Shown: positions 11,875 through 42,572 of the stretch, piece by piece
Layout of the letters: every line of letters begins with the position of its first letter
Position numbering within the stretch: position 1 is the first letter of the stretch
DNA from: an uncultured Lachnospiraceae bacterium
GTDB lineage: Bacteria; Bacillota; Clostridia; Lachnospirales; Lachnospiraceae
Direction: 5' to 3'
Length of the DNA: 64,000 nucleotides
NCBI GenBank assembly: GCA_947245585.1
Contig: CAMXPV010000001.1
Span: 117,198-181,197, forward strand
The notes under the pieces: model-generated
What the model was told of the DNA's origin: nothing
Databases searched by the model: none
Seen by the model: the letters and a program-made list of their open reading frames with translations, nothing else
Position numbers and translations under genes: made by a program

Positions 11875-11875
11875 T

Positions 11876-12502: not shown

Positions 12503-12521
12503 AAATCCCCTTTCATCTACC

Positions 12522-15199: not shown

Positions 15200-15213
15200 G
15201 ACATATCCTCCAC

Positions 15214-15708: not shown

Positions 15709-15738
15709 GTTATCTTCCGTTCCTTTCCTCTGAATCTT

Positions 15739-16281
15739 TTATCGTATCTTAAGCGGTGCAAGTCCCAGATAAATGATGTCGCCCTTCTCTACCCTGCAGG
15801 GCTCTCTGGAGGAAACCCGGTAGGGCTTGTCCTCCCCGTTTCTCTGTATTCTGGTTCCATTCTCGCTGTCCAGATCTTCTATGTACCAACTGCCGCCGCT
15901 GTAGTTCATAACCGCATGTTCCCCGTCCACGGTGCCCGCATAGTCGGTATTTCTCAGGCTGACATCCACCTGATTTTCCCCTTCGTCCCTGCCGAACACG
16001 ATGGATGTTTTTCGGTAAATATCCCAGGTATCGGTGATGTTATTGTCCTCCCCTAGCAAAAGGATTTCCGAAATCTCCGCCCTTCCCGTATCATATTCCC
16101 GCCGTCGTCTGTACTTTCCGCAATCAATAAACCACAAAAACAAGAATATGGTCCCTACCGCTCCGAGAATCGTCAGGCTCGTTTGCTTTTGCAGTACGTT
16201 TTCCAGATACACGTAGGACAAAACCATGCCTGTGATACAGGATATGACAATGGTTATGTCCAGGGTTCCTTTTTTGTTCAT
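15739..16281 (-). CDS. FHA-domain membrane protein
   Basis: 180 aa; GGGAGGAGTG precedes the ATG. Two transmembrane helices lie at residues 8-27 and 34-52 (TIVISCITGMVLSYV, LTILGAVGTIFLFLW), followed by a cytoplasmic FHA domain from about residue 92. Its motifs are SIVFGRDEGENQVDVSL, DGEHAVMNY and SENGTRIQRNGED, so the phosphothreonine-binding residues are kept. It is the counterpart of the Fha scaffold in type VI systems. It starts 30 bp after the second VgrG-like gene. Confidence 0.85.
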   Translation of the reverse strand: MNKKGTLDITIVISCITGMVLSYVYLENVLQKQTSLTILGAVGTIFLFLWFIDCGKYRRRREYDTGRAEISEILLLGEDNNITDTWDIYRKTSIVFGRDEGENQVDVSLRNTDYAGTVDGEHAVMNYSGGSWYIEDLDSENGTRIQRNGEDKPYRVSSREPCRVEKGDIIYLGLAPLKIR

Positions 16282-16311
16282 ACGTCACTCCTCCCTTATC
16301 CACTCCACTGC

Positions 16312-17703: not shown

Positions 17704-17731
17704 TGGTTTTTCCTCCTGTTTTCTCTAGTTT

Positions 17732-19075
17732 CTAGTTATTCTCATCACTATGGGTTTGCTCTTTTTCTAAAATGAAATTCTGTCCGGTAAGCATGGAATG
17801 CATAATCAGCTTATCTTCGCCTTCCAGTGTATAAAACTGCTGCCATTCCGAATATATATCATAAAATGCTCCGTTAATCTTCGCATAATACTCCTCACCA
17901 ACCGCCTCGCACAATCTTTCATTTGGACAGGCATACGAATATTTTTCCCGATTCTCCAAATCCGCCGAAACCGAATCCCAGTGATACTCCGGAAATGTAT
18001 TTCGAACCTCTATAATCATGCTTTCCTGTATAGCCTCTTTTCTGTCCTCTCTTATGCCCTGCCTTCTCTCGGAATCATAGGTTGCCAAAAGCTTTTCCTG
18101 AATCACAATCTTTTTTCCTATCATTTCCTCCACTTCCTCTTGGGTCAATACGGTTTCTCTTATGTCTTCATAGTTCTTTGTGGGACAAAACCGAGTAACC
18201 ATGTACTCTCCAAAATATTTTTCTGGCAATCCATCACCAATCGTCCTCGCAGGATGATAAAACCGCCCGTCTCCTGTCTGATAAAAAACATCTACAAGAC
18301 TTCCTTCTTGCAGGCCATCTTCAACATCACCTAAAACCACCGTCCACATATCCTGTCGTCCGTCCTGATTCAAATCCTCCACAAAAATATCCCAATAAAC
18401 AAATCCATTTATGCAGCTATCTTCATATAATATATTTCCTTCTTTATCCGCTATGAAAATGATCGGATAGGAATGATTATCATCTATTGTCGCAGAAATC
18501 AGGTTCACTTCTCCCCATGTCTCCAGATAGACTGATGCAGACGACAAATCGTCATTCAACGGCACCCCTTTATCTGTAAAATGATAGGGGCGGAATAGAT
18601 AATTCATGTCAATATCCTGCTGATCGCATTTGACTCTGGCCTCTATCCTGTCATTTTCCTGGAAAGTAAATACTGTTTCCGCCTGACAGTCTTCATACTG
18701 AAATGTGCATTTTGCCTGATTTCCCGTTATTATGCCTTTAAATGGTCTGCATCGTTCACTCCATATCCAATACCAGCCCGCATCATCACCAATGACAATA
18801 ACGCCTTCTATCTCATTCCCATTCACTTTCGTAATAATAAACCCAAATTTGTCAGACCCATTTACCGTTTCATCCACAATCCATGACTTCCACAAAATTG
18901 AACTATATTCTATAGATTCACCCGGTATCTCCACTCCCTCTTCTATTTCTATCGTTTCTTCCGCTTTTTTCTGCTCATCCTCAGCATAATCTGCTTGGTG
19001 ACATCCAACGGCAAATAGCAGGAAAGCACAGCTAATAATGCACGTTGATTTGCGAAGCGTTCCTTTCATAGTCAT
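17732..19075 (-). CDS. Lipoprotein with FG-GAP-like repeat, probable immunity protein
   Basis: 447 aa. The start at 19075 overlaps the effector's stop (ATGA). A lipobox (FAVGC) gives a membrane-anchored extracellular protein. The middle contains a calcium-binding-type repeat (DLNQDGRQDMW). The coupling to the lysozyme-domain protein and the location outside the membrane, where that enzyme would act, fit an immunity role. Three other cluster proteins share this layout. I know of no direct family assignment. Confidence 0.65.
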   Translation of the reverse strand: MTMKGTLRKSTCIISCAFLLFAVGCHQADYAEDEQKKAEETIEIEEGVEIPGESIEYSSILWKSWIVDETVNGSDKFGFIITKVNGNEIEGVIVIGDDAGWYWIWSERCRPFKGIITGNQAKCTFQYEDCQAETVFTFQENDRIEARVKCDQQDIDMNYLFRPYHFTDKGVPLNDDLSSASVYLETWGEVNLISATIDDNHSYPIIFIADKEGNILYEDSCINGFVYWDIFVEDLNQDGRQDMWTVVLGDVEDGLQEGSLVDVFYQTGDGRFYHPARTIGDGLPEKYFGEYMVTRFCPTKNYEDIRETVLTQEEVEEMIGKKIVIQEKLLATYDSERRQGIREDRKEAIQESMIIEVRNTFPEYHWDSVSADLENREKYSYACPNERLCEAVGEEYYAKINGAFYDIYSEWQQFYTLEGEDKLIMHSMLTGQNFILEKEQTHSDENN

Positions 19076-19989
19076 TCCCACTCCCCTTCTGTAAAATAGA
19101 GATACCATTTTTCAGCATAATCTGCTCTCATTTGCAGTTGATCTTTATTATCTCCTGATCTCTCATAAGTAGCATGAAAAACCAAGGCTAAATCCATACA
19201 GTCGTACTCAGCCTTACTAAATTCTTCCACTGTCATTTCTTTTGGAAACCCTTCTGAAAGGGGTAATTTATCATAGTATTTTAGAGCATTCCCCGATAGC
19301 CACCTTCTTCCTACGTGTTTTACATCTCCTTCTTCATTTGCTTCTACACCATAAAACGATTTCAATAAATAATCCAGTTGAATATCCATCATTTTATGCG
19401 GATCACTTTCTGCCAACTCACTCGCTTCTATAGTCTCTAAATGTGCAAATTCTAAAAATTCCCTGCCTTCAGACCACTGCACTAATCCAAATCCATACTC
19501 CGGATCCTCCCAGTACTGCCATACACCCGGGTTCATACCAGATTCTTTCTGCATATTCCCCAATACACCGCATATTGCCTCCGTGGTCCATCCCTGTTTT
19601 TTTAAAAAATTATAAATGTACTCGGCGTTCGCCTTCTGTTGCTCCTCAAGTAATCCCCCTTTATGATCTCCGTACACTGTACACGCCAATGCATAAAGCT
19701 TTTCTTGCCCACTCACATTCTCTACTGCATTATACCCCTGACCACTCGTAACAGGATAAATAAACCCGCCATGCCTACAGAAGAGAACCGAAGTCATAAT
19801 AATCCCTGCTTTGCTTTCTTCTTCTGAAATTACAATTGGCAATCCCATAAACCTTCCACTCCCTATTGTGGGTACAATACCTAGGTTAAAAAATGACTCA
19901 TACTCTACGCCAAAATTGCTATTTTCCCACTCATCCTCAAGATCCATTAAATATTGGCATACTCCATGTTTCTGCATAATTTTTGTCAT
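19072..19989 (-). CDS. PAAR-like fragment fused to a phage-tail-lysozyme domain (effector)
   Basis: 305 aa. Residues 8-85 match only the second half of the PAAR-like region of the other two effectors (HGVCQYLMDLEDEW, then MTSVLFCRHGGFIYPV). The first half (EYLV.GAVL.C) is missing. From about 115 to 300 lies a tail-lysozyme domain: AEYIYNFLKKQGWT, GVLGNMQKESGMNPG with the likely catalytic Glu149, and YGFGLVQWSEG. It should cut peptidoglycan. The start is coupled to the stop of a short upstream frame, next to the toxin-antitoxin insertion, so the N-terminus may have been lost when that module arrived. Confidence 0.75.
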   Translation of the reverse strand: MTKIMQKHGVCQYLMDLEDEWENSNFGVEYESFFNLGIVPTIGSGRFMGLPIVISEEESKAGIIMTSVLFCRHGGFIYPVTSGQGYNAVENVSGQEKLYALACTVYGDHKGGLLEEQQKANAEYIYNFLKKQGWTTEAICGVLGNMQKESGMNPGVWQYWEDPEYGFGLVQWSEGREFLEFAHLETIEASELAESDPHKMMDIQLDYLLKSFYGVEANEEGDVKHVGRRWLSGNALKYYDKLPLSEGFPKEMTVEEFSKAEYDCMDLALVFHATYERSGDNKDQLQMRADYAEKWYLYFTEGEWE

Positions 19990-29577: not shown

Positions 29578-30930
29578 CTATGGCTCAACTTCGTCAGTTC
29601 CCCACGGATATGCCCCTCTTGGAAACAGTTCTTGATTTCCTTCTTCTTCATACCAAATGCTCTGCTCATCTTCGTAAGGCGCTTCTTCTAAAATGGTTTC
29701 CCCAATCATTTCACCTGATTCATAACGCCTTTCTCTATAATAATAGTCAAGTGTTTTATAATACAATTCCTCCTCATATCCATACATGCGTGGAGGTTCC
29801 TCGTCGCTTGAGGGTATCAGTCTGGCATATAACCGCCAGTCTCCATCATCAAAGCAATACATTTCCCGGCCGCGTGCCCAATAATTCCCCCATTCTTCCG
29901 TCATAAACATGAGTGTTCTCTTCTGTGTATTCCATTTCGGAAACTGTATATCTGTTTTCGGAAACGGTTTCTCCTCATACATCTTTTTATCATTATTCCA
30001 AATCAGAAAATCTAATGTCGTGCTGCTGTTCTCCTGCCCCAGAATATGGTATGCGCAGAATACTAAATCGAGAAATCCATTCCCATCAATATCTATCAAC
30101 CAGTAGATGTCTTCATATAAAATAAACAAATTTTCCATAATCAACTCCTGTACGGCCTTGCCATCCATATCTCTGACTGTTAAACGGTAATCCGCATACT
30201 TTCCGCCTGTTGCAAATGTCACCGGCGTATAAGGAACGCTTATTCTCTCAAAAGAAATTTCATACTTTTCATCCTCACCTATCGTTTCTGTCCATACTAT
30301 TTCCGGAAGAGAAGAAACTTCAGGCTGCGAAGATAAGACTGCTTTTTTATCCGGCGAAAGAAGTTCAATATAATCTGTCTCTAGCATAAAGCAGACCGGT
30401 ATCTGTATATTTCGAACCTCCTGTCCAACTTCTGCCGTAATCTGTATATTGAAATCATCTGCCGAGATGGCTGTTATTGTACCCTCTGCCGGAATATAAA
30501 GTGTCTGGTCATCCCGATACACGCTACCCTGATTCAACTTCTGAAAAACAATCCAATCTTCATATCCATAGTCCCCTGCCAATTCATCTGAGGTCGTAAG
30601 ATAAGCCACCTTATGGTTCCCCAAATCTACTACAGCGGAGTCTGCAAATATGCCTTCTGCTGCTTTCTGATGACTCTCCTTCAGAATTTCTTCTTTCTGA
30701 ATCACTTTCCCCCGAATCTCTTTCTCCTGAATGTCTTTCTCCCAAGTCTCTTCCTCCTGAATCCCCTCCTGCACCGTTTCTTCCCTATCCACTGTTTCCT
30801 CACTCCCAACACTTTCCGAAATTTCAACGGTTTCAGGTTCCTCGGCGATTGGATTTGTATACTCTGCTACTACGATGATACCTGCCATAACTGCCGCTAT
30901 TGATATCAGTCTGATGATTCTTTGCCGCAT
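29578..30930 (-). CDS. Membrane-anchored FG-GAP-like protein, probable immunity
   Basis: 450 aa; GGAGGGTGG precedes the ATG, and the gene overlaps the end of the upstream effector by 25 bp. An N-terminal helix (IIRLISIAAVMAGIIVV) without a lipobox cysteine is followed by a long Glu-rich tether (residues 30-95). A beta-rich domain with a calcium-type motif (WLIDIDGNGFLDLVF) follows. Orientation outside the membrane and coupling to the GH19/lysozyme-like effector fit an immunity function. Confidence 0.65.
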   Translation of the reverse strand: MRQRIIRLISIAAVMAGIIVVAEYTNPIAEEPETVEISESVGSEETVDREETVQEGIQEEETWEKDIQEKEIRGKVIQKEEILKESHQKAAEGIFADSAVVDLGNHKVAYLTTSDELAGDYGYEDWIVFQKLNQGSVYRDDQTLYIPAEGTITAISADDFNIQITAEVGQEVRNIQIPVCFMLETDYIELLSPDKKAVLSSQPEVSSLPEIVWTETIGEDEKYEISFERISVPYTPVTFATGGKYADYRLTVRDMDGKAVQELIMENLFILYEDIYWLIDIDGNGFLDLVFCAYHILGQENSSTTLDFLIWNNDKKMYEEKPFPKTDIQFPKWNTQKRTLMFMTEEWGNYWARGREMYCFDDGDWRLYARLIPSSDEEPPRMYGYEEELYYKTLDYYYRERRYESGEMIGETILEEAPYEDEQSIWYEEEGNQELFPRGAYPWGTDEVEP

Positions 30931-32384
30931 ACAAATCCACCCTCCATTAGCAACTCATAATTGTCTTCAAATTGATTCCAGTTATTCGGTGCAGAAAATG
31001 ATTTCTCATCAGTTTTTATCACATTTTTCCCCATATCATATTCCCATTCTAACTCTCCTCTGGCAATTTTACCTAAAGGGTCACTTGCTCCACCTTTTAC
31101 TTTACCATTTATAAAACTTTCCGCCGTCAAAAAAATTCCCATTGTCAACTGATTTCCATTATCATTTGCCTTTACCTTCACATAATTATTCAAATTCTTT
31201 TCCTCTGTCTGCACACATACCGCCCAACGCCACGCTGATGCCTCCCACGGCAGTTTTCTCAATTCCTCCACATAACCTAGCGCATTCTCATCTATATAAC
31301 CATCATAATACCCATTCTCTTTTAAATACTTTAGACACTCCAATTGACTATCTCTATGCGTAATCTGCATATATGCTACTCCGCGTACTTCATATGGATA
31401 CCCAGGATTATAATCCTTCGGATAAAACTCTGTTACCGCCCTGCCAAATTCATCTGTTATTGTTTTTCCATTCTTATCCTTTCTATTGGCATACACTTGA
31501 GCTGCTCCAGATTCAGACACGCATATTAAGAGGAAACATGTTATACTATTTTTATCCGTAATGTTAAATTCTAACAGGATTTCATCTATTTTTCTCAATT
31601 CTATTAATCCGACCGTCCACCCCAAGGTTTCCAAAACGTTTTTTATATGTGCTTGTATTTCCGTAAGATTACTCTTCTGTCCGCTTGTAACCGGATAAAT
31701 AAATCCGCCATGTTTGCAGAAAAGAACCGAAGTCATTGTAATTCCCTGCTTCCTCCCATTTTTCAAATTTCCAATCCCCAAACTGCCTACATTTACTACA
31801 CCTATTGATTCAGTTGCATTTACATCAACAAACTCCCTATAGAAGGAAGAATCCTCTAATGCCATATATTCCTGCTCATTAAAATCTATATTTTCCCACT
31901 CTTCCTCCAAATCCATTAGGTATTTACATACTCCGTTTTTTTGACAATCCGCCTTATTTTTCCTAATTTCTTCTTTCTTCTCTGATAGCGCAGCTTCTTT
32001 ACAATTGCATGGAAATGGCATAATATTTAATCCCTGTTTCGTATCTGTCACATTTGCGTGGTGTAGATTATTTATATACATCGGATTTTCCCATACCCTT
32101 AAAATCCCTGTCGGTTTGTCCTCTTTTGTCTTTTTTTCGACTCCCTCTATATGCACACTTTCATTGCCAGATAAAGGAAAATCATCCCACACTGCGCTGG
32201 TACAGGACAAAACCGCACCATCCACCAAATACTCATCCATATAATCATTCATGAGTTCAGTACAAACAATCGTTTCCGCCTCCTCATCGGTAACCTCTCT
32301 CCCTGCCATTTCCTTTGCAAAATCATGCTTTAAAATAGACTGTTGCTCCTCTTTTTCCTTCTCCCATCGTTCCTGATCGCTCAT
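30906..32384 (-). CDS. PAAR-like (DUF4280-type) effector with a GH19/lysozyme-like domain
   Basis: 492 aa. Residues 50-235 are the PAAR-like cap: DEYLVDGAVLSCTSAVW, FPCNCKE, ITMTSVLFCKHGGFIYP. The C-terminal 250 residues look like the lysozyme/GH19 superfamily: CFLLICVSESGAAQ with candidate catalytic Glu291, and RGVAYMQITHRDSQLE, matching the RG-x-QxT box of GH19 enzymes. It should cut peptidoglycan outside the target membrane. It follows the first VgrG-like gene by 21 bp, so the cap could sit on that spike. A downstream overlapping gene supplies the likely antidote. Confidence 0.75.
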   Translation of the reverse strand: MSDQERWEKEKEEQQSILKHDFAKEMAGREVTDEEAETIVCTELMNDYMDEYLVDGAVLSCTSAVWDDFPLSGNESVHIEGVEKKTKEDKPTGILRVWENPMYINNLHHANVTDTKQGLNIMPFPCNCKEAALSEKKEEIRKNKADCQKNGVCKYLMDLEEEWENIDFNEQEYMALEDSSFYREFVDVNATESIGVVNVGSLGIGNLKNGRKQGITMTSVLFCKHGGFIYPVTSGQKSNLTEIQAHIKNVLETLGWTVGLIELRKIDEILLEFNITDKNSITCFLLICVSESGAAQVYANRKDKNGKTITDEFGRAVTEFYPKDYNPGYPYEVRGVAYMQITHRDSQLECLKYLKENGYYDGYIDENALGYVEELRKLPWEASAWRWAVCVQTEEKNLNNYVKVKANDNGNQLTMGIFLTAESFINGKVKGGASDPLGKIARGELEWEYDMGKNVIKTDEKSFSAPNNWNQFEDNYELLMEGGFVCGKESSD

Positions 32385-32405: not shown

Positions 32406-34022
32406 TTATTTTGTAGAAGTAATCTTAGATAAAATCGGCATACTCCCCGCCACCGCCTCCATCAGCGCACTCCCGTACTCCTCTGCCGGCATGTTCGACA
32501 GGATCGGCAGAATCGCCCCTTCCAATTCATACTTCTCCTCCCTCTGCTCCGGCAGGGCCGCACTGCCGCCGGAACCGGAAGGCGCTTTCTTTTTCTTCTC
32601 CGCCACCATTGGCGGCGCGGCCATAAAGTTGCCGGTACAGCCGATCGCATCAAAGGCATTACACAGATTAATCACCGTCGGCTTTGACAAATCTTTCCTT
32701 ACCAACGTAATCTCCTTGGGCGCAGTCACCGTGACGCTCTTTGCCTGAAACTGCACCTGTCCCTGCGCCAAAATGGAGATTTTGTTTACGGTTTCCATCC
32801 GTACCATACTGCTGTCAATAAGGTCGATCTGGGCATTCTGGTCTTTATGATGTACAAGCCCCATCTCTCCCGGTTTCATATACAGACGCTTCCCGTGGTC
32901 CGTGGTGAAATAGCGGTTGTGGTAATCCGCCAGATCCCCACAACGATCCCCGTTTTCCCGCAGATTGTAGATGGCTTTGGCATTCTCTTCGTTGTCTTTA
33001 TCAAAGTACAACGCTGCCTTTGTCCCTTTCTCGGGCATACAGTACAGCATGTTTCCGGTGATCGGCCGCCATGGATAATCATAGGCCGTGTCCGTATCCT
33101 GAGTCTCGTCAATGTCCAGATGGAGGCGCAGAACTTCCCCCTTTGTCTGTAACACCTCCCCCGCAATCACCACGCCTCTCAGCTTATCAGCCGGTATCTT
33201 ATGGGCAGGGAAACACTCTTTTGGATATGCGCTGATACAGGTCTCTATCCCATTACGGTCGAAGGAGACTTCGCAGGCCATAACCCCGTATGTCCTGCCG
33301 GAGACTGCTACACTCTCGCCCGCATGGAGCAATGCCCTGCCATAAATCCGAAATCCTGTCTTTTTATCCTTCACGGAGGGTCTTTCCGGATTCCGGTACA
33401 GGACTTCCTCATATTTATGCCGGTCTATGTCTATCTGTACCGGACTGCTCTGTGGCAGTCCTATGTTGATTTCCTTTCTGTTTCCGTAGTCCGAGGACAA
33501 AATTCTGCCGCCCAGATGGCTGACGATCCTGCGGATAAACTCATAATCCGTCTCCTGATACTGAACTAGCGGACAGGGAATCTCCCAGTCTGGCAGATTC
33601 CATCTGACCCTGACGTCATATTCCTTCGCGACCTCTTCCGTGATCTCCCTGTAGGTTCTGCTGATATCCTGAAAAGAACGGGATCTCTTCCGCCTGTCCA
33701 TCCGCCAGAGACAGGAAACTGCCTGAAGGGTAAGAATCGCGTAGCCGCCCTCATTGTTAAGCTCCGCCCGCTCAATCAGCCCGCTGAAAAGGGATTCCTG
33801 TCTGCCCTCTGCGTCCTGCCCGGTCAGTTCAATGGGCTCTTCCTGCATCCCGCACAACGCCTCATACGCATCCTGAAAGTTTACCTCACAGGAAACCGTC
33901 AACCTCGCCATCTTGCCATACTGTTCCTGCAAATGGCAGGAGCGTATATGCTGATACGCAAATCTGCACTGTATTTGCAGCTCTCCCAATAACATCATCT
34001 CTTCCGTTCCTTCCCTGTTCAT
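32406..34022 (-). CDS. VgrG/gpD-like spike protein (first, longest copy)
   Basis: 538 aa. The start is uncertain by 8 codons: ATG at 34022 or at the Met near the LLGELQ segment. QYQETDYEFIRRIVSHLGG near residue 155 is the VgrG hallmark, followed by a gp5-OB-like part (NMLYCMPEKGTKAALYF) and needle repeats to about 470 (KISILAQGQVQFQAKSV). A C-terminal extension (about 470-538) with a Pro/Gly/Lys linker ends in a helix (EYGSALMEAVAGSM) not found in the other two copies. It may bind an effector or a baseplate partner. Lies between dnaJ-like and effector genes. Confidence 0.8.
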   Translation of the reverse strand: MNREGTEEMMLLGELQIQCRFAYQHIRSCHLQEQYGKMARLTVSCEVNFQDAYEALCGMQEEPIELTGQDAEGRQESLFSGLIERAELNNEGGYAILTLQAVSCLWRMDRRKRSRSFQDISRTYREITEEVAKEYDVRVRWNLPDWEIPCPLVQYQETDYEFIRRIVSHLGGRILSSDYGNRKEINIGLPQSSPVQIDIDRHKYEEVLYRNPERPSVKDKKTGFRIYGRALLHAGESVAVSGRTYGVMACEVSFDRNGIETCISAYPKECFPAHKIPADKLRGVVIAGEVLQTKGEVLRLHLDIDETQDTDTAYDYPWRPITGNMLYCMPEKGTKAALYFDKDNEENAKAIYNLRENGDRCGDLADYHNRYFTTDHGKRLYMKPGEMGLVHHKDQNAQIDLIDSSMVRMETVNKISILAQGQVQFQAKSVTVTAPKEITLVRKDLSKPTVINLCNAFDAIGCTGNFMAAPPMVAEKKKKAPSGSGGSAALPEQREEKYELEGAILPILSNMPAEEYGSALMEAVAGSMPILSKITSTK

Positions 34023-34082: not shown

Positions 34083-34427
34083 CTACTTCATCTTCATAAA
34101 CGCCTCAAACATATCCGTCACATCAAGCGGATTCTTCTTGTTAAAATTCATTCGAGGTGCAGCCGCCCTGCTCTTTTCTTCTGGTTTCTTCTGTGCCGTT
34201 TTCTTCCCAAATCCCGCTGTTCTTTCCTGCCTGGCATCATATTCCCTGCGCTTTTCGGCATTGCCAAGCACCTCATACGCCTCTACGATATCCTTAAATT
34301 TCGCCTCTGCCTCCGCGTTTCCCGGATTTAAGTCCGGATGGTACTGCTTGGCTTTTTTGCGGTACGCCCGCTTGATCTGCTCCTCATCCGCATCCCGGGG
34401 CACGCCCAATATCTTGTAATAATCCAT
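34083..34427 (-). CDS. J-domain (DnaJ-like) co-chaperone of the injection cluster
   Basis: 114 aa. The start at 34427 is preceded by AAAGGAGC. Residues 1-65 are a complete J domain with the HPD motif (YHPDLNPG) and the [14 protein letters not shown] helix. No Gly/Phe region, zinc finger or substrate domain follows, only a basic linker and a C-terminal [18 protein letters not shown] peptide. A J domain recruits Hsp70, so it may help assemble or recycle sheath or tube proteins. It stands between the tube and spike genes. Confidence 0.85.
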
Positions 34428-34450
34428 AAAAGGCTCCTTTTTGTGAGAAG

Positions 34451-34520
34451 GCGTATCCAACCTCCGTTGCATACGCCCTCCAATTTACCCATTTCGTCCA
34501 ACAATGCCTTACGCATTGTT
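34451..34520 (-). promoter_or_regulatory. Tandem hairpins between the tube and dnaJ genes
   Basis: AACAATGC/GCATTGTT (34500-34520) and GCGTAT/ATACGC (34451-34476) each form a stem in the minus-strand transcript without a T run. They may reduce downstream transcription or protect the upstream mRNA, so that the highly needed tube genes are expressed more than the spike and effectors. Confidence 0.4.
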
Positions 34521-34944
34521 ATGCCATATAGCCGCCCTCTACCGATACGGTGCTGATCTTGTCTTTCTTCTGTCTGATCACAAGCGTAAAGGTGCCGATC
34601 CCCGCCTCATCGCCGTAATCCTCTTTATAGTCTATTACAAAGGCGTTCGGGAAACAGTATTTTCTCTCCATAATGCCTGCTGCCACATACTCAACCGTCA
34701 CCTTCCTGTAGCTGTCCGCCCGCTCCGCCGGAACAACGGACCACAGCGCCATCTTTCTGGTGCTGTCAAAGGGATCTCCGCCCACTGCGGTCAGGATTTT
34801 TCCCTTGATCGTCATGGTTGCCCCGAAATCTTTTGTCCTCGCATTGGAATCCTGCGGAATATCCGTGGTCATCTTCACACTCTTTACACACTCCTTGGAT
34901 ATCTCAAACGCTTCTGTACCTTCAACTTTTACTACAAATGCCAT
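34519..34944 (-). CDS. Hcp/tail-tube-like protein (second copy)
   Basis: 141 aa; GGAGGAGAAGAACA precedes the ATG. The order of blocks (VKVEGTEAFEISKECVKS, DFGATMTIKGKI, WSVVPAERADSYRKVTVEY, PNAFVIDYKE, GTFTLVIRQKKD) is the same as in the neighbour and corresponds to tube proteins of contractile systems: small beta-barrel subunits forming hexameric rings. Pairs of tube genes occur in extracellular contractile systems. Annotation pipelines often leave these proteins unnamed. Confidence 0.7.
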   Translation of the reverse strand: MAFVVKVEGTEAFEISKECVKSVKMTTDIPQDSNARTKDFGATMTIKGKILTAVGGDPFDSTRKMALWSVVPAERADSYRKVTVEYVAAGIMERKYCFPNAFVIDYKEDYGDEAGIGTFTLVIRQKKDKISTVSVEGGYMA

Positions 34945-34961: not shown

Positions 34962-35393
34962 CTATTCGCCTGCGTAACCGCCCTCAATTTTTACCTTGTC
35001 GTTCTCATCCTTCTTCTGCTTGATGTGCAGATAGAAGGTGCCCACGCCCGTCTCGTCGTCCATCTCCTCCGAATACTCCATGACAAAGGCATTCGGCACT
35101 TCATACTTGCGGACAACCTGGCCGGCGGAAATCACCTCCACTGCTGCCGTGCGGTAGCAGTCCGCTCTCTCAGAGGGAACAACCGACCATTTGGACAGTT
35201 CCAATGTGCTGTCACTGCCCTCCCCGCCGAGCTTGTAGAGCATCTTGCCCCAAATCTTCATGGACACGCCGAAGTCGGTTGCCCTCGCATTGGAGTCCAC
35301 AGCGGACTCCGACCCGAAGATCACGTTTTTAATGCTCTTCTCATCCAGAGCGATCTGCTCTGCGCCTCCTGTTACATTCAACCTGAATCCCAT
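34962..35393 (-). CDS. Hcp/tail-tube-like protein (first copy)
   Basis: 143 aa; AAGGAGGAAGTAAAA upstream. Contains FGVSMKIWGKMLYKLGG, WSVVPSERADCYRTAAV, YEVPNAFVMEYSE and GTFYLHIKQKKDEND, with roughly 45 percent identity by eye to the second copy. It lies directly after the sheath gene, as tube genes do in contractile tail clusters. It probably forms the inner tube, with the paralogue supplying a tip or base ring or a heteromeric tube. Confidence 0.75.
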   Translation of the reverse strand: MGFRLNVTGGAEQIALDEKSIKNVIFGSESAVDSNARATDFGVSMKIWGKMLYKLGGEGSDSTLELSKWSVVPSERADCYRTAAVEVISAGQVVRKYEVPNAFVMEYSEEMDDETGVGTFYLHIKQKKDENDKVKIEGGYAGE

Positions 35394-35417
35394 TTTTACT
35401 TCCTCCTTTTTTTATAA

Positions 35418-37598
35418 TTAAATTGCACGGTTGTTAGAGTTAAAGCGATTGATCTCAATTTCCAGATTCTTGACATTGCCGTTGAAGGTAATGTTCAGCA
35501 CACAATATCCGTTGCTCTCGTCAATCTCATATTCCACATCGTCTCCTGCGCCCAAAATAGCATTGATACAGCCTTTCTTCTCCAGCCATTTGCTCTTCTG
35601 GCTAGACGGGTTGTTGGAGAAGAATTTCACGATGTTTTCCTGCTTGTAGTCACTGGTCGCATGGCGCAGTACCCTTTCAATATAGGTGGTTACCTGCGTC
35701 TTGTAGATGGGCTCGTACACCTTGCCGTCGCTCATCAGGTTCCTTGCCTTGTAAACCATGATATGGGAAACATTCTCCGCCTCCAACATGGCATTTTCGG
35801 ATGAAAAGACAAAACCGAAGCTGCGCCTGTTAATTTCATTCTTGATAGAATTGGTAAATCCTGTAATTTCCTTTGCCATCACCGTATGCACACGGAGCGG
35901 ATGATCGCCTGCCTCGATATCGAACCGGACGCCGGGAAACTCCTCGTCCACATTTCTTTTGAACTTCTCTTTCAGGTACTCCGGACACTGATAAGCCGCC
36001 ACAAGCCCCGCCGCGATATAGGCCGCGCCCACATACACGCCGTCGATCCACAGCTTCATAATGTCCTCTTTTTCCTTGGACAGCTCCGCCATGTTATCCT
36101 CATTGACCGTCATGCGCTTATCCAGAATGACTCCCGACTTTTCCTTGGGAATAATCGTAAAGTTCGGGATACAGGGAATCGCAAATTCACTGAACGCTTT
36201 TCCTGTGAGCGAGCTGCAGCGCTCCTCAAACTTCTCGATCCCCTCTGTCGCCATGTAATTAAAGGTGGTCTTATCCCCTGTTTCATAGCTGAAAAAGCAC
36301 TGTACGGAATAGTCTTTCAACACATCCAACAGCCGTACCAACGCCTCCACGCTGTTGACCCCCGTCTTCTCCACCTTCTCATTTCCCTGAAAACGCTGTC
36401 TGGTCAGTTTGATATTGGAATTCTGATCCAGAGAAACGGAAGGCACGACGCTGTACCATATGGTGTTATCAAAGTCATTCTTGGCATTGACCGTATTTAA
36501 AAAGGCAATCAGTCTGGGCAGGTTATTGCTCTTTACCAACATATCGTTAGAAACGTTAGTGATGAACATGGACGGCCTCATGCCTTTTAAGTTCGACGGA
36601 TACTGCTCGAAAAATGCCCATACGCCCAGAATCTTCTCAATCAACGGTTTTACCACTTTGATAAAGTCATCCTTGGCCGTCTTATAAAATTCCAGATAGG
36701 AGTTGTAGTTGCTGACCTCCTGCTTGACATCGATATTGCTGACCATGGTGGATGCGAGCGGACAGTATGTTCTCGTCACAAGCGCTTTCACGTAATCGCT
36801 GCTCTCTTCATTGAGGGCCTCGTAATCATCCTCCAACGCCGCGATCAGCCCGGTATTGACATTGTCGTCCAGAACCATCAGCTCCGCCGTCTCCGTCTTA
36901 GGCACTTCCAACACCTTGAGTTCTCCCTTTTCATCCATGCTCAAGACACCAAGCGCAAGCGGGGTGTTGTCTTTCTTTTCTTCCGCCTCTCCCAAAAGCA
37001 GTCTGGTCTTGATATCCTCGATGGCAAGGGGAAGCATCGCCAGTACATTGTTATAATTCACGCTCGCCTCTTCAAACATCACGTTCAGCTTATCCGCGAT
37101 ATCCAGTTTGTGCGGGTCACCGTCCTCCAGTTCCGCGTAATTCTTGTAGGTGTACTGGAGTTCCTTACGATTCTGCTTGATGTCCTCCATGACCTTCTTC
37201 GGGGAAATCATATCCGTCAGCTTGTCAAACTGGAAATCCACGTTGATGATACTCTGTGATCGTTTTGCCTCCACAAGGGACATCAGCATCTTGAGGAAAT
37301 CATTCTGCCGATTCAGATAAATCGGTGTGATCATGTCCTCCGGAATGGTTTCCGGTTTTTTCAGTGTGTACATGATCTTCTGGTTGTTGGCATTAAAGAA
37401 AGAATAGACCACCGGCTCAAACTTCTCGATGAACTCGTCAAAGTTCCGAACCAACAGCGCCTCGTTCATCTCCTTGATCTTCTCGTCGCTCAGACTGTCG
37501 ATTCCTCTCACATCTCCTACAAGCGTCAGAAGATCCGGCTTCTCCGGATTGATCTCTTCAAACAGTAATGTCCTGTTTGTCTGTTTGATAATGCTCAT
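35418..37598 (-). CDS. Contractile sheath-like protein (probable TssB/TssC-type fusion)
   Basis: 726 aa; GAGGAGGTTAAAC upstream. Residues 1-about 110 resemble the small sheath subunit (LLTLVGDVRGIDSLSD, RNFDEFIEKFEPVVYS). From about 120 the large-subunit pattern appears: SLVEAKRSQSIINVD, NLPRLIAFLNTVNAKN and a C-terminal beta-rich part ending FNGNVKNLEIEINRF. Length equals a TssB plus a TssC. A fused sheath would form the helical outer wall that contracts to drive the tube. It follows the AgrB-vWA gene by 12 bp. The assignment rests on motif order, size and position beside tube and spike genes, not on a search. Confidence 0.65.
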   Translation of the reverse strand: MSIIKQTNRTLLFEEINPEKPDLLTLVGDVRGIDSLSDEKIKEMNEALLVRNFDEFIEKFEPVVYSFFNANNQKIMYTLKKPETIPEDMITPIYLNRQNDFLKMLMSLVEAKRSQSIINVDFQFDKLTDMISPKKVMEDIKQNRKELQYTYKNYAELEDGDPHKLDIADKLNVMFEEASVNYNNVLAMLPLAIEDIKTRLLLGEAEEKKDNTPLALGVLSMDEKGELKVLEVPKTETAELMVLDDNVNTGLIAALEDDYEALNEESSDYVKALVTRTYCPLASTMVSNIDVKQEVSNYNSYLEFYKTAKDDFIKVVKPLIEKILGVWAFFEQYPSNLKGMRPSMFITNVSNDMLVKSNNLPRLIAFLNTVNAKNDFDNTIWYSVVPSVSLDQNSNIKLTRQRFQGNEKVEKTGVNSVEALVRLLDVLKDYSVQCFFSYETGDKTTFNYMATEGIEKFEERCSSLTGKAFSEFAIPCIPNFTIIPKEKSGVILDKRMTVNEDNMAELSKEKEDIMKLWIDGVYVGAAYIAAGLVAAYQCPEYLKEKFKRNVDEEFPGVRFDIEAGDHPLRVHTVMAKEITGFTNSIKNEINRRSFGFVFSSENAMLEAENVSHIMVYKARNLMSDGKVYEPIYKTQVTTYIERVLRHATSDYKQENIVKFFSNNPSSQKSKWLEKKGCINAILGAGDDVEYEIDESNGYCVLNITFNGNVKNLEIEINRFNSNNRAI

Positions 37599-37610
37599 GT
37601 TTAACCTCCT

Positions 37611-39935
37611 CTATCTTTCGTTTGGTTTTAAGTCTCTATAGTGAACTTCTATTTCCGCATCTTCCTGATCAAAAATAAAAGTTACTTTTTCCCCATAATA
37701 CAGATGATAGGCATGTCCTTTTACCAAAAACTCCCGCCCCATCAACACAGTGGCCTTGCTGTTATTCTTAATGATCAGGCTCCGGTCATCGCCCGGCCTT
37801 ATAATGATCCGCTCCGCGCCTTTTAAGTTAAGCGGCAGGTTACAGGTATCTAAAATCCATTCCAACGTAAGGATTTCACGGCTGCATCTCGCAAACAGAT
37901 TGATGCTTTCCGGAGGGTAATCGATTCCCTCCCGATTGCGTATCACATAAATTTGCAGCTTTCCGTTAAACTCACTCCTGCGGTTTCCTGCCTCTCTGGG
38001 AAGCGCTCTTCCTGCGTCGATCACCTTTCTTCTGTCAAATGTCCTCTTTTTCTGCCGATAGGAAAGAACCACTATGATAAGCAATGCCACAGCAAAGACC
38101 ACGAGCACTAACCAGAAAAACCAGTCTATTTCCGGCTCCGGCGGCTCTTCCTCCACAACCGGCACCTGAATCTCCACCGTCTCTTCCATATCTCCGTAGT
38201 AATTACCGTACAGCCCGTCGAAAGCAACCCGCAGCTTCACTGTCGCATCCCGCTCATACTGCCGGGACAGACGAAGAGCCCCTCCCGTCATTTGATAGGT
38301 CTGTTGCTCGCCGTCCAGATAAAGCTGTACGCCCCCGTCTTTCAGATGCCCATCTAACAAATCAAGGCCATTCTGATTGGTGATTTTCAATCCCATATTC
38401 GCTGTCCGCACCGACGAAGTGTAGGTATAATCGGCGCTGACATCAATGTCATACTCCGCCGTAAGATAGGCGCTGACATCCATCGATGAATCCGCACTCA
38501 TCTGTATTTTTACCTCATCTCCCGACGGGTTTTGTAGTTCTATGACTGTATAATTTCGTCCTTTTGATACGTTTACCCTGTCAGCCTCACAGTTTACTGT
38601 CATATTTTCGTTCTGCTGTTTTCCAAACAGAACAAGCTTTGCCTTACTCATCAGGCAGTCCGGCAGCTTTACCGACAGTTCGCCGCTCAATCCGCTGATC
38701 TTTCCCACGTGAGATGCCTTTAACCCCCACTGTTCAAACAGCAGTTTCTCTGCATAATCTCCCAATTGCTCTCCGTCAGACAGTTCCCTTAAAGTACCGC
38801 CGGTCATTTCAGCTGCTGCATACACGGTATCGCCTTCTTCTAACCGCGGCCCTAACGCCACCACGTCTATGACAATACCATCCTGTTTAGCCCGTTCCAC
38901 CGACTGCGCAAACAAGGCCGCCGATTCCTGTGTACCGTCTTTCGTCTTCATCATGATCTCGCCGTCCGAAATCAAAATGATTCTTTTAGATGCCGCCGTA
39001 TCATCAAACAACTCTACCGCAGCTGCCAATCCGGCCCCCGCGTTTCCGTAATTCTGATACCCGATCTCCTCCAATGCATCCTCTATCATCGTATGACTGC
39101 TGCCCAGAGGTAAACTTACGCAGACCTCATTCTGATAAGCCGTCATGCCGATCTTATATTCTCTCGGCAAAACCGTCGACAGCATTTTGGGAAAATCAAA
39201 GGAAGCATACCCTTCATCCACATCCTTCATGGACTGGCTGCAATCCAAGACTACCACAATCTCGTGCGTAGAAGCCGTATTCGTCTCCTTTGCATTGGCT
39301 GTGATGTCCGCAAGCAGATAAAAACAGAAGAAAGCCATCAGAAAGACCGAGGGCTTTGCCCTTTTGAACTTTTTTACGGTCCTTTGCAGGATGCAGGGGA
39401 TCTGCAGGCTTAAGGTAAGAAGCAGCCCGACCGCCATACACACCGCAAGTTTCTCGTTTCCGGCCATCTTACCGATTATCGCAATGACACACACCGCTGC
39501 TGACAGGATTCCCGCAATTGCCCGGTATCTTGTTTTCTCCTCCGGCTCCAGTCTCCGATTCTCCGAATCCACCGGACTGAATAGAAACACCAATCCGGCT
39601 CCCGCACACATACAAATGCACAACGGCAGGCTGTAGGTAAGCTTCGATGCCACTAAAATACATCCCGCCAGAAGTGCGGTAGAAGAAAACAGGCATGTTC
39701 CCGTATGTTTTGCATGATATCCGCCGCTGAATTTTCTGATTGCCATAAAGGGAAGGATCACAAGTATCCCGGTTACAAATTTTCCCATAATTCCTCCCAC
39801 CAACATGACCAGAAAAAGCGGGGCAGCGGTCATCAGAAGACACAGGGATGCGTACTGATATAAGTCTCTGTCCTCTTCCTCCACTGCCCCATGGATAATC
39901 AGCCACTCTGTCATTCTGTCCGCTAACCATCCCAT
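37611..39935 (-). CDS. agrB: AgrB-type peptidase fused to a von Willebrand A protein
   Basis: 774 aa in one frame. Residues 1-about 190 are AgrB: multi-pass membrane protein with FSGGYHAKHTGTCLFSS, keeping the catalytic His74 and Cys81 seven residues apart. A further helix (PSVFLMAFFCFYLLADI, about 195-211) resembles a signal anchor. Then comes a vWA domain with MIDAS motif DCSQS (231-235) and LISDGE, beta-rich repeats, a second membrane helix (DWFFWLVLVVFAVALL, about 625) and a cytoplasmic C-terminal domain of about 125 aa. No stop or start separates the parts. AgrB would process the AgrD peptide; vWA proteins are often adhesion or scaffold parts of secretion clusters. The gene is 9 bp after agrD and 12 bp before the sheath gene. 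Confidence 0.85.
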   Translation of the reverse strand: MGWLADRMTEWLIIHGAVEEEDRDLYQYASLCLLMTAAPLFLVMLVGGIMGKFVTGILVILPFMAIRKFSGGYHAKHTGTCLFSSTALLAGCILVASKLTYSLPLCICMCAGAGLVFLFSPVDSENRRLEPEEKTRYRAIAGILSAAVCVIAIIGKMAGNEKLAVCMAVGLLLTLSLQIPCILQRTVKKFKRAKPSVFLMAFFCFYLLADITANAKETNTASTHEIVVVLDCSQSMKDVDEGYASFDFPKMLSTVLPREYKIGMTAYQNEVCVSLPLGSSHTMIEDALEEIGYQNYGNAGAGLAAAVELFDDTAASKRIILISDGEIMMKTKDGTQESAALFAQSVERAKQDGIVIDVVALGPRLEEGDTVYAAAEMTGGTLRELSDGEQLGDYAEKLLFEQWGLKASHVGKISGLSGELSVKLPDCLMSKAKLVLFGKQQNENMTVNCEADRVNVSKGRNYTVIELQNPSGDEVKIQMSADSSMDVSAYLTAEYDIDVSADYTYTSSVRTANMGLKITNQNGLDLLDGHLKDGGVQLYLDGEQQTYQMTGGALRLSRQYERDATVKLRVAFDGLYGNYYGDMEETVEIQVPVVEEEPPEPEIDWFFWLVLVVFAVALLIIVVLSYRQKKRTFDRRKVIDAGRALPREAGNRRSEFNGKLQIYVIRNREGIDYPPESINLFARCSREILTLEWILDTCNLPLNLKGAERIIIRPGDDRSLIIKNNSKATVLMGREFLVKGHAYHLYYGEKVTFIFDQEDAEIEVHYRDLKPNER

Positions 39936-39944
39936 TTCCGTTTC

Positions 39945-40094
39945 CTACTTTCTCTTGAATTTTGACAGTGATGCAGGTGCTTTTGGCTGATATGCAAACA
40001 TACATGCTGCTGTATTGGCCTCTGCCCGCAAGGAAGCATTTAATACTTTTACCGCCCTTTCGGAAACCGCTTTGGAAATTTTCTTTTTGTCCAT
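39945..40094 (-). CDS. agrD: AgrD-type cyclic autoinducer peptide precursor
   Basis: 49 aa, too short for routine gene calls; GGAGG 8 nt upstream of ATG at 40094. A Lys-rich amphipathic N-terminal helix (residues 1-25) leads to ANTAACMFAYQPKAPASL and a charged tail KFKRK. The Cys31 plus P-K-x-P pattern is that of cyclic-lactone precursors; the likely product is a five-residue thiolactone ring, Cys31 to Tyr35, with the QPKAP part as cleaved tail. The gene is immediately upstream of agrB and the sheath operon. It ends 9 bp before the agrB start codon. Confidence 0.85.
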   Translation of the reverse strand: MDKKKISKAVSERAVKVLNASLRAEANTAACMFAYQPKAPASLSKFKRK

Positions 40095-40157
40095 ACCATC
40101 GTCCTCCTTTTTTCAAATCATTGCAGAAACCGACAAATTTTTCAATAACCCATGCGC

Positions 40158-40186
40158 GAACGGTCATTATTCTGCACAAGCGGTCA
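40158..40186 (-). promoter_or_regulatory. AgrA/LytTR-type direct repeats upstream of agrD
   Basis: On the minus strand TGACCGCTT (40186-40178) and TGACCGTTC (40166-40158) repeat with a 20-bp step, about two helical turns, the layout used by LytTR regulators. They lie 65-95 bp upstream of the agrD ATG, with a TTATTG extended -10-like element closer to the gene. A dyad TATACAA/TTGTATA is at about 40190-40207. Confidence 0.55.
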
Positions 40187-40260
40187 ACTTATACAACATC
40201 TTGTATAAAAATAACTTTTTTCTCTGCATTTTGAATAAAAAAGAGGAATCGTTGCCTTTT

Positions 40261-40289
40261 TTGTCAATTTTTTGTAAAATAGATATATA
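40261..40289 (+). promoter_or_regulatory. Promoter of the response-regulator/kinase pair
   Basis: TTGTCA (40261-40266) and TATATA (40284-40289) with a 17-bp spacer, divergent from the agrD promoter region. Confidence 0.5.
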
Positions 40290-40329
40290 GTCAAACTATA
40301 TGACGGAAATTAGGGAAGGAGTATCGGGC

Positions 40330-41037
40330 ATGCGTATCCTGATCTGCGATGATGACCACAATATCATAGAAGAACTCAAAGAATATCTGAACGAATATTT
40401 TGCCCAAACTGATTCTATCATGCCAGAGATCGCCGCCTTTTCAGACGGGAATTCCCTGTTAGCGGATTCGGGCGCAAACGACCTTGTTTTTCTGGATATT
40501 GAAATGCCCGGTTTAAACGGCATCTCTGTGGGAAATGCGTTGAAAAGGAAATATCCCCATGTCTTCATCTTTATCACTACCTACCATGAACAATATCTGG
40601 ATGATGCCATGGATGTTCCGGTATTCCGCTATCTCCTTAAACCTCTGGATAAAAAACGCCTGTTTCGGAATTTGGATGCTGTTATGCACGCCTATTGCGA
40701 CCTCGTTTTTCCCGTAGCCATTGATACGGGAACATCTGTGGTTACGTTATCTGCCGCAGACATTATCTTTATCGAAACACAGGCCAAAGCCACCCTTGTC
40801 CATACGGTTTCCGGTACATATTCCACGAAGGCAAGCCTGGTCTCCTGGATGAATACCTTAAGCAGCAATTCTTTCTTCCAAACGCATAAGGGCTACCTTG
40901 TCAACATGAGACATATCAAGTCATTTGAAAAAAATTTGATATCGTTTCATTCTTGTGAAGAACAGGCTTATCTGTCCAGAAGAAAATGCAAAGAGTTCAA
41001 GAAAAGATATTTTTTTTATATCAGCCACACTACCTGA
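40330..41037 (+). CDS. agrA: LytTR-family response regulator (AgrA)
   Basis: 235 aa. The start at 40330 is preceded by GGAAGGAGT; the frame begins 10 codons earlier without an RBS. The receiver domain has the acidic pocket CDDDH and phospho-acceptor Asp56 (VFLDIEMPGLNG), with Lys in LLKPLDKKR. The LytTR DNA-binding domain follows (about 130-230: IIFIETQAKATLVHT, FFQTHKGYLVNMRHI). It would bind the direct repeats before agrD and activate the whole cluster when peptide is sensed. The kinase gene starts 21 bp downstream. Confidence 0.95.
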   Translation: MRILICDDDHNIIEELKEYLNEYFAQTDSIMPEIAAFSDGNSLLADSGANDLVFLDIEMPGLNGISVGNALKRKYPHVFIFITTYHEQYLDDAMDVPVFRYLLKPLDKKRLFRNLDAVMHAYCDLVFPVAIDTGTSVVTLSAADIIFIETQAKATLVHTVSGTYSTKASLVSWMNTLSSNSFFQTHKGYLVNMRHIKSFEKNLISFHSCEEQAYLSRRKCKEFKKRYFFYISHTT

Positions 41038-41058
41038 CAAGGATACGGGGGATTTTAC

Positions 41059-42363
41059 ATGGAAATCGTATACTATGTTATCATATATTTCGTTGAAGCG
41101 CTGATTCTCTGGCTATACTGCAATGATTTGTTCACGGCAAAATACACTATCCGTCGAACCTTCTTAATGCTGTCCGCTTTTTACTGCCTGCTGTTTTTTC
41201 TGTCCCGTTTAAATTTATATTGGCTAAACGCAGCGGCTTTTCTGATTGCCAACTTTCTTTTTATTTGTTTTTTATATGACAACAGTTGGTCTACGGCTCT
41301 GTTTCATGCCGGAATTACCACTGTTGCCATGACTCTCGGAGAACTGTTTTCGTTTTCTTTTTTTCCGAATTTTGCCAAACATTTTTATGACACATCCCGT
41401 AATGTTACGTTACTCATCATTTACGCCCTTTCTAGCAAACTCATCTATTTTCTTATCATTTACCTGTTGTCCCATCTGCCCATAATCCGCGCAGACAAAA
41501 AAGCGGCCGGAGGCCGCGGTTCTCTTGTGCTTGTACCGATTCCTTTTGTTACGTTTTTTATCACCATCACGCTTTCTACCATCTATCATACAACCGATAT
41601 TTCCGCCACTCTCAACAATATGATTGCTGTCTGCTCTATCCTTCTTCTTTCGCTCAATCTGCTCATCTGGTTCTTTTTCAGCCTCACGCAGAAGCGGAAT
41701 CAGGAGTTTACGGAATTACAGCTCAGTCTTGTGAAGGAAAACGACTTGGCGGAATATTACAAAATGTTGAGCAACCAGAACGAAAACAGAAGTATTTTGA
41801 TCCATGACATCAAAAATAATCTCTTTACCATCGCCAATCTTGCCAAACAAAACCAGACGACGGAAATCATTGATTACATCGACAAACTCGTGCAGACCTC
41901 CAACCTGCAAAGCTCGGACAGCCTGCGGATATGCAAAAACAACACCCTGAATGCCATTCTCTGCCGCTACAAAGAAGAATGCAAGAAACGAAATATTGAC
42001 TTTGTAATCGACCGGTTGGATAACAGTCTTGACGTTATGACTGCCAACGATTTAACCGCACTCTTTTGTAATCTCCTCGATAATGCCATGGAAGCCGCAG
42101 AATGCGTTCCCGATTCCTATATTATCCTCAATATCTTAAAGCAGGAAAATTCTCCTGAAATTTTACTTTCTATTGAAAATTCCTGCCTCAATAACCCCTT
42201 AACCACATCCGGGAAACTGCCCTCCCACAAAAAGGACAGCTCTCGTCATGGATTCGGAATGAAGAGCGTGCGGCGCACGGTTAACCGCTACGAGGGCGAT
42301 ATAGAGTTTTTCTATAGGAAGGAAACAGGGACTTTTTGTGTGGTGGTTAAAATAAATGCGTGA
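41059..42363 (+). CDS. agrC: GHKL-family sensor histidine kinase (AgrC)
   Basis: 434 aa. About 220 residues of membrane helices (six or seven segments) form the peptide sensor. The catalytic half has the H box HDIKNNLFTIANL, the N box LFCNLLDNAMEAAE and the G box HGFGMKSVRRTV, as in AgrC-type kinases with a GHKL (HATPase_c_5) domain. It is coupled to the LytTR regulator and divergent from agrD/agrB, making a full Agr circuit. The probable signal is the peptide encoded at 39945-40094. Confidence 0.95.
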   Translation: MEIVYYVIIYFVEALILWLYCNDLFTAKYTIRRTFLMLSAFYCLLFFLSRLNLYWLNAAAFLIANFLFICFLYDNSWSTALFHAGITTVAMTLGELFSFSFFPNFAKHFYDTSRNVTLLIIYALSSKLIYFLIIYLLSHLPIIRADKKAAGGRGSLVLVPIPFVTFFITITLSTIYHTTDISATLNNMIAVCSILLLSLNLLIWFFFSLTQKRNQEFTELQLSLVKENDLAEYYKMLSNQNENRSILIHDIKNNLFTIANLAKQNQTTEIIDYIDKLVQTSNLQSSDSLRICKNNTLNAILCRYKEECKKRNIDFVIDRLDNSLDVMTANDLTALFCNLLDNAMEAAECVPDSYIILNILKQENSPEILLSIENSCLNNPLTTSGKLPSHKKDSSRHGFGMKSVRRTVNRYEGDIEFFYRKETGTFCVVVKINA

Positions 42364-42398
42364 TACAAATTCCTTATTGTCACTCTATATAACCCCCA

Positions 42399-42521: not shown

Positions 42522-42572
42522 ATCACACCTCTCCTTCTATAATAATTAATATATTTTCTTACTATTTTCTTG

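What the first reader, a model, noticed from the sequence alone, without database searches (positions are those of the whole stretch)
37611..42363. An Agr quorum-sensing circuit heads a contractile-injection operon
agrD, agrB(vWA), sheath, tube and tube genes follow each other on the minus strand with gaps of 9, 12, 24 and 17 bp, and the AgrA/AgrC pair is divergent from them. AgrA-type repeats lie upstream of agrD. So a secreted cyclic peptide should switch the entire injection machine on with cell density. I know of no described system in which the autoinducer genes are the first genes of the sheath operon. What is seen: gene order, motifs. What is inferred: that the cluster is one transcript.
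Basis: partly seen in the sequence, partly recalled or inferred. Interest (0 to 1): 0.93.

Follow-up and report, generated by a model that had tools for sequence, protein, structure and literature searches.

The report
Quorum-sensing genes heading an injection machine
In gut bacteria of the family Lachnospiraceae, the genes predicted to make a cyclic peptide signal stand first in a gene cluster predicted to encode a contractile, syringe-like injection machine, and here the signal-processing enzyme is fused to a predicted membrane protein of that cluster, so the cells likely build the machine only when enough neighbours send the same signal.

The parts
39945..40094 (-). agrD: 49-aa autoinducer precursor, predicted 5-residue ring C-M-F-A-Y
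   Evidence: TIGR04223 26.5 bits against cut-off 19; AgrD-like ORF in the same place in 19 loci counting the window; ring residues are among the most variable positions
37611..39935 (-). agrB-vWA fusion, 774 aa: AgrB domain residues 5-181 (about 39393-39923), TM7 197-215, vWA 221-405 (about 38721-39275), beta-rich region to about 589, TM8 606-624, C-terminal domain 658-768
35418..37598 (-). contractile sheath protein, 726 aa
   Evidence: AF2 model; the 36 best VIA-align rows are from contractile tails, pyocin, eCIS and T6SS
34962..35393 (-). small conserved gene 1, candidate tube protein (143 aa)
   Evidence: homologue after the sheath in 79 of 81 loci; no PDB tube match by profile
34519..34944 (-). 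small conserved gene 2, paralogue of gene 1 (141 aa)
   Evidence: 49% identical to gene 1; homologue in 79 of 81 loci, not always a gene apart from gene 1
34083..34472 (-). DnaJ-domain protein
   Evidence: PF00226 E 5e-28; homologue in 70 of 81 loci
32406..34022 (-). VgrG/gpD-like hub protein
   Evidence: PF05954 E 8e-13; TIGR01646 below cut-off; homologue found in only 14 of 81 loci
30906..32384 (-). protein with a weak DUF4280 match (PAAR-like by recall)
   Evidence: PF14107 E 0.0017, below cut-off; homologue in 13 of 81 loci
40154..40186 (-). AgrA/LytTR-type direct repeat TGACCGCTTGTGC-N7-TGACCGTTCGCGC, period 20
40117..40145 (-). promoter-like TTGAAA-17-AATGAT with TG before the -10
   Evidence: aligned positions read TCGAAA-17-TATGAT in L034
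40300..41037 (+). agrA: receiver + LytTR response regulator, 245 aa
   Evidence: PF00072, PF04397
41059..42363 (+). agrC: sensor kinase with GHKL ATPase, 434 aa
   Evidence: PF14501 E 1.5e-22
10696..19989 (-). second part of the cluster after a 641-bp gap: phage tail lysozyme, two further VgrG/gpD-like proteins, two FHA proteins, SpoIIE/PP2C phosphatase

Best explanation
This is an Agr-type peptide quorum-sensing cassette whose signal genes stand first in a gene cluster predicted to encode a contractile injection machine, and it likely switches that cluster on directly when the peptide accumulates. AgrD is predicted to be cut, cyclised and exported by the AgrB half of the fusion protein; the peptide would be sensed by AgrC, which would phosphorylate AgrA; AgrA-P would bind the 20-bp-period repeat 8 bp upstream of the -35 box and drive transcription of agrD-agrB/vWA-sheath and the genes behind them, giving positive feedback. 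The vWA half is predicted to stand outside the membrane between TM7 and TM8, with a C-terminal domain inside, and would serve the machine (anchor or receptor); one polypeptide then ties signal maturation to a machine component. Shown: gene order, domains, repeat, recurrence, repeated recruitment of unrelated agr cassettes; sheath by predicted fold. Inferred: transcription as one unit, AgrA binding, peptide structure, role of vWA.
For: Gaps of 9/12/24/17 bp; no terminator-like site between agrB and sheath. AgrB H-x6-C found by pattern in 24 of 26 fusion proteins and vWA DxSxS in 25 of 26 (the one MIDAS miss, P0013, lies outside the stretch searched, since the alignment, which holds it, has D231/S233/S235 invariant). 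Repeat pattern: 1 exact hit in the genome, control 0; 2 hits with up to 3 mismatches. Repeat and -35/-10 spacing are kept in L033-L035, with a degraded first half in L036. Recurrence: 18 of 39 vWA loci with 5 kb or more upstream have agrB (2 fused, 13 separate same strand, 3 inverted), all 18 with an AgrA-type gene; 0 of 18 loci without vWA. Background: 37 AgrB in 31 genomes of the genus, about one per 2.8 Mb. CIS-linked AgrBs polyphyletic: 8 label changes, AU p 5.8e-6. Repeats at period 20/21: 12 of 19 agr loci, shuffles mean 1.1, largest 3 in 40 rounds. Sheath 91-93% identical while AgrB is 23-31% (L038, L041, L045, L047). The three ring residues differ in 93, 73 and 87% of pairs, other AgrD positions on average in 27%.
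Against: No expression, binding or peptide data. In 21 of 39 comparable vWA loci no agrB was found nearby, so the machine does not require it. By half-to-half similarity the window's own repeat (8 of 10) does not pass the 9-of-10 threshold, so the window and L033 are not among the 12 of 19. In L036 the first half of the repeat is degraded. The fused form is rare: of 397 family genomes drawn, only the own one had it, though G016 of the same genus has it too. Repeats at 20/21 are also enriched in vWA-first loci (12 of 34) and mildly in sheath-first loci (6 of 21), so LytTR control need not mean Agr. No AgrD was found at the three inverted agrB loci. The cluster has 220- and 641-bp gaps.
Confidence: 0.78

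Rival explanations
1. The agr cassette senses other strains or other systems rather than own density: AgrC would mainly read foreign or shared peptides (eavesdropping or competition sensing), and the injection operon is one of several outputs.
For: Other agr cassettes head other weapon-like operons: type VII secretion in the same genome (L122: WXG100, YukC) and Rhs plus type-VII-like genes in G438 (L140). Ring residues diverge quickly between sister species.
Against: The exact ACCG-type pattern occurs once in the genome, before this agrD; the three operon heads looked at in this genome carry three different box types, which argues for private circuits.
Confidence: 0.1
2. AgrB in the fusion is a membrane platform for the vWA part of the machine and no longer a signal processor; the Agr neighbours are leftovers.
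For: Fusions lie in several branches of the vWA tree: 26 of 119 rows, 9 changes, 7 forced; the predicted topology of the fusion is consistent.
Against: H-x6-C pattern kept in 24 of 26 fusions and an intact agrD 7-9 bp upstream of the fused gene in L033-L036 and the window; the unfused relative L043 has the same agr type with separate agrB ending 20 bp before vWA.
Confidence: 0.08
3. The linkage is a chance neighbourhood, a mobile agr module that lands near many operons without controlling them.
For: agrB is fused, separate, inverted or absent among loci with sheaths 97% identical to the window's. Of 37 AgrBs in the genus, 7 were seen beside this cluster; the other 30 were not all examined, and several of those examined head other genes.
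Against: 18 of 39 against an AgrB background of about one per 2.8 Mb; same strand and directly 5' of vWA in 15 of the 18; promoter repeats far above shuffles.
Confidence: 0.04

Closest known systems
Staphylococcus aureus agr (agrBDCA) and clostridial Agr systems (recalled)
   Same: AgrD precursor, AgrB with His/Cys dyad, AgrC GHKL kinase, AgrA LytTR regulator, direct repeats upstream of a promoter, positive-feedback arrangement
   Different: Here the autoinducer promoter runs straight into structural genes of an injection machine; AgrB is fused to a vWA protein; agrAC are divergent; an RNAIII-like RNA was sought only by Rfam in 34000-43700, with no match
Type VI secretion systems under quorum sensing in Gram-negative bacteria (recalled)
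   Same: A contractile weapon under cell-density control; VgrG-like proteins, a weak PAAR-like match; FHA and PP2C proteins
   Different: Signal genes are encoded elsewhere in those genomes (recalled); here they are the first genes before the sheath; no TssJ/L/M/K Pfam match in the ORFs scanned
Extracellular contractile injection systems (AFP, PVC, AlgoCIS)
   Different: Sheath without any Pfam match, a two-TM vWA protein directly before the sheath, LytTR-type promoters
Type VII secretion operon with agr at its head (G000:C3, this genome)
   Same: agrA-agrC-agrD-agrB followed on the same strand by secretion genes, own 21-bp-period box
   Different: Different machine; AgrB not fused

Membership tests
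Agr quorum-sensing system | AgrB cysteine endopeptidase with His/Cys dyad | tested here: met
   PF04647 E 5e-36; GGYHAKHTGTC, H-x6-C, in the window protein
Agr quorum-sensing system | AgrD-type cyclic peptide precursor next to agrB | tested here: met
   TIGR04223 over cut-off, 9 bp before agrB
Agr quorum-sensing system | GHKL histidine kinase and LytTR response regulator | tested here: met
   PF14501, PF00072, PF04397
Agr quorum-sensing system | AgrA-type direct repeat at the promoter | tested here: met
   20-bp-period repeat 40154-40186, 8 bp before the -35; enrichment in related loci; the window's own halves match only 8 of 10
Agr quorum-sensing system | a secreted thiolactone peptide activates AgrC | not testable with these tools
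   needs peptide chemistry and a reporter
Contractile injection system | contractile sheath | tested here: met
Contractile injection system | tube and baseplate/hub | tested here: inconclusive
   VgrG/gpD-like hub match present; tube not confirmed by sequence
Type VI secretion system (canonical) | membrane complex TssJ-TssL-TssM and TssK | tested here: inconclusive
   no such Pfam match in the cluster ORFs scanned; absence from Pfam does not exclude divergent forms
Extracellular CIS (eCIS) | AAA+ ATPase (Afp15-like) and tail fibre (recalled) | tested here: inconclusive
   the AAA proteins found among the ORFs scanned are Lon and ClpX, outside the cluster
vWA domain with MIDAS | DxSxS metal site | tested here: met

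The most novel reading that the evidence does not exclude
The AgrB-vWA chimera makes the quorum signal a read-out of the machine itself: because the peptidase that matures the pheromone is one polypeptide with a membrane component of the injection apparatus, the peptide level would report how many machines or anchoring sites the population carries, and not just how many cells, so that the population counts weapons and not only bodies. Swappable agr cassettes at this site would give each strain a private firing code.
Probability: 0.15. Interest if true: 0.92.

Novelty: new variant of a known kind. Interest (0 to 1): 0.8.

Why it matters
It would be a direct, one-cluster link between a Gram-positive peptide quorum signal and a contractile weapon, in gut Lachnospiraceae. 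The repeated recruitment of unrelated agr cassettes to one locus, with fast-changing signal peptides beside a conserved sheath, makes the question 'when do gut Firmicutes fire their injection machines' testable with a short synthetic peptide. The AgrB-vWA fusion joins a pheromone peptidase to a machine-cluster protein in one polypeptide; my search for AgrB with von Willebrand factor and fusion found no paper on it by title and abstract.

Tried and rejected
FHA identity of the C-terminal domain of the vWA protein: not supported; no Pfam match for the window domain, no PDB match below E 1, no profile match to the two FHA proteins of the cluster. Tube identity by PDB profile: no tube match. Sheath identity by sequence: the PDB profile search gave only two weak unrelated hits; the fold search settled it. 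RNA families in 34000-43700: none at the gathering threshold.

A genome search for the TGTCGA box used a pattern with period 20 and found nothing; the own-genome site has period 21, so that zero is no evidence. The genus scan with that motif and variable spacing hit 2 of 31 genomes; it did not list the own-genome site either, so its pattern was too narrow to count sites.

In the AgrB tree one row labelled 'other' (L012, G001:C28) is in fact CIS-linked and one (L013) is at a contig end with the agr type of L045. In one search L012 was relabelled and L013 left uncounted, and the changes fell from 10 to 8; the one-clade test of that call kept L013 among the others. One duplicate row (L027 = L041) was dropped. 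Long branches are present in that tree.

Rows dropped before counts: the headline restricts to loci with at least 5 kb upstream (57 of 80); without the restriction vWA loci are 59, of which 23 have agrB (4 fused, 16 same strand, 3 inverted). Searches used 74 of 81 loci (180 bp or more upstream). Only 80 of 123 sheath relatives were returned. For the inverted agrB loci (L055, L092, L104) no AgrD was found. P0005 and P0013 miss the AgrB dyad pattern. In one search the two small paralogous genes were counted by best hit, so one gene can count for both. The fusion model was made with P0001, which differs from the window protein in at least one residue. The label EsaA-like is recalled from position and N-terminus; Pfam gave only a sub-cut-off ABC2_membrane_3 match.
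Full report
What is there. The window lies in an unnamed 3.69-Mb genome (G000:C1) whose closest sheath relatives are Lachnospiraceae records. The named genes exist with the stated gaps: agrD 39945-40094, agrB-vWA 37611-39935, sheath 35418-37598, two small genes 34962-35393 and 34519-34944, all minus; agrA 40300-41037 and agrC 41059-42363, plus. Behind them, with gaps of 46, 60 and 21 bp, come DnaJ, VgrG/gpD-like and weak-DUF4280 genes; further on are a phage tail lysozyme, two further hub-like proteins, two FHA proteins and a SpoIIE/PP2C phosphatase. Two larger gaps, 220 bp and 641 bp, interrupt the series.

The linkage recurs. Of 123 sheath relatives in genome contigs, 80 loci were held. With iterated profiles and at least 5 kb of upstream DNA, 39 loci have the vWA gene; 18 have agrB (2 fused, 13 separate on the same strand, 3 inverted), 22 have an AgrA-type gene, and all 18 agrB loci do; of 18 loci without vWA none has agrB and one has an AgrA-type gene. 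In the genus, 37 AgrBs occur in 31 genomes, and 7 were seen beside this cluster (G000, G001, G006, G013, G016, G023, G440). On the sheath tree (45 rows) agrB presence needs 10 changes, 7 forced; in one supported group of four, with sheaths 97% identical to the window's, L036 is fused, L043 separate, L055 inverted and L037 has no agrB but a divergent AgrA.

Agr cassettes are exchanged. Sheaths 91-93% identical to the window's stand beside AgrBs 23-31% identical (L038, L041, L045, L047). CIS-linked AgrBs do not form one clade (8 changes, AU p 5.8e-6); long branches are present in that tree, as its output warns. AgrD-like ORFs precede agrB in 19 loci counting the window; none was found at the three inverted loci. 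In the six closest AgrDs the three residues between ring Cys and Tyr differ in 93, 73 and 87% of pairs against a mean of 27% elsewhere; some other positions are also variable.

The switch. TGACCGCTTGTGC-N7-TGACCGTTCGCGC ends 8 bp before TTGAAA-17-AATGAT. Repeat and promoter are recognisable in L033-L035 and, with a degraded first half of the repeat, in L036. The pattern has one exact hit in the genome and a second, on contig C35, when 3 mismatches are allowed. Other loci carry other repeats with the same period: 12 of 19 agr loci against a shuffle mean of 1.1 and maximum 3; 12 of 34 vWA-first loci against 1.4 and 4; 6 of 21 sheath-first loci against 1.6 and 4; other period pairs give 0-3. The window and L033, at 8 of 10, are not among those 12, and the loci are related, so these are not independent counts. 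The second injection cluster of the same genome (G000:C48) has its own TAAAAATTACA repeat before vWA. So LytTR-type control looks general for this machine family, and Agr is its most complete form.

A wider pattern. In the same genome (G000:C3) agrA-agrC-agrD-agrB is followed on the same strand by an EsaA-like protein (label recalled), WXG100 (PF06013 E 1.5e-8) and YukC/EssB (PF10140 E 3e-81), with a TGTCGATTA repeat of period 21 before agrD. This AgrB groups with CIS-linked AgrBs of L038, L067, L071 and L110. In G438 agrB is followed by an Rhs protein, an EsaA-like protein and a WXG100-like protein (25.5 bits, below the 27.3 cut-off).

Literature. Searches of the PMC library for contractile injection system with AgrB (0), with Lachnospiraceae and quorum sensing (0), contractile injection with LytTR (0), type VI secretion with cyclic lactone autoinducer (0), AgrB with von Willebrand factor and fusion (5 papers, none on this by title and abstract), type VI secretion with AgrD and Clostridia (3 papers, none by listing), contractile injection systems with Gram-positive, sheath and Clostridia (3, by listing), contractile injection with Firmicutes/Clostridium/Lachnospiraceae (15 of 10,496 listed), agr quorum sensing with AgrD, Lachnospiraceae, gut (12 of 72 listed) and type VII with AgrB/AgrD/operon/Rhs (8 of 11 listed) showed no description of this arrangement. 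Of one paper, PMC9230969, I saw passages only (no occurrence of 'lachno' or 'quorum'). Subscription papers and preprints are not covered. Quorum control of T6SS in Gram-negatives and the S. aureus agr design are recalled, not looked up.

Verdict. A private Agr circuit that likely drives an injection operon, with a pheromone peptidase fused to a machine-cluster membrane protein. Parts are known kinds; the arrangement is a new variant.

Noticed in passing
L122 (G000:C3:1-14000), 54-7222: A second agr cassette of the same genome stands at the head of a type VII secretion operon (EsaA-like by recall, WXG100, YukC/EssB) with its own 21-bp-period direct repeat.
   Followed up: partly
L140 (G438:C57:26000-40000), 2595-11149: agrB followed by a 1704-aa Rhs-repeat protein and type-VII-like genes.
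   Followed up: partly
L124 (G000:C48), 1-4401: A second vWA-sheath cluster in the same genome, at a contig end with no agr visible, with a different LytTR-type repeat before vWA.
   Followed up: partly
L123 (G000:C46), 1-6925: A third agr cassette in this genome, with an RHS-repeat protein about 1.4 kb from agrA.
   Followed up: no
window 12522-16281: Two FHA proteins, a SpoIIE/PP2C phosphatase and a weakly PP2C-like protein in the injection cluster, reminiscent (by recall) of post-translational T6SS control.
   Followed up: no
L037 upstream of vWA: A locus with no agrB found but a divergent AgrA and an ACCG-type 20-bp-period repeat (not beyond shuffles alone): a possible receiver-only state.
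   Followed up: no
window 37611-39350 and L033-L036, L043, L055: The vWA protein diverges far faster than the sheath (sheath 97-98% identical with vWA 69-87%), as if its exposed part were under diversifying pressure.
   Followed up: partly
L073 (86 and 1750), L074 (821 and 2486): Two TTACAT-type direct repeats about 1.7 kb apart in front of the vWA operon, suggesting a second gene under the same regulator.
   Followed up: no
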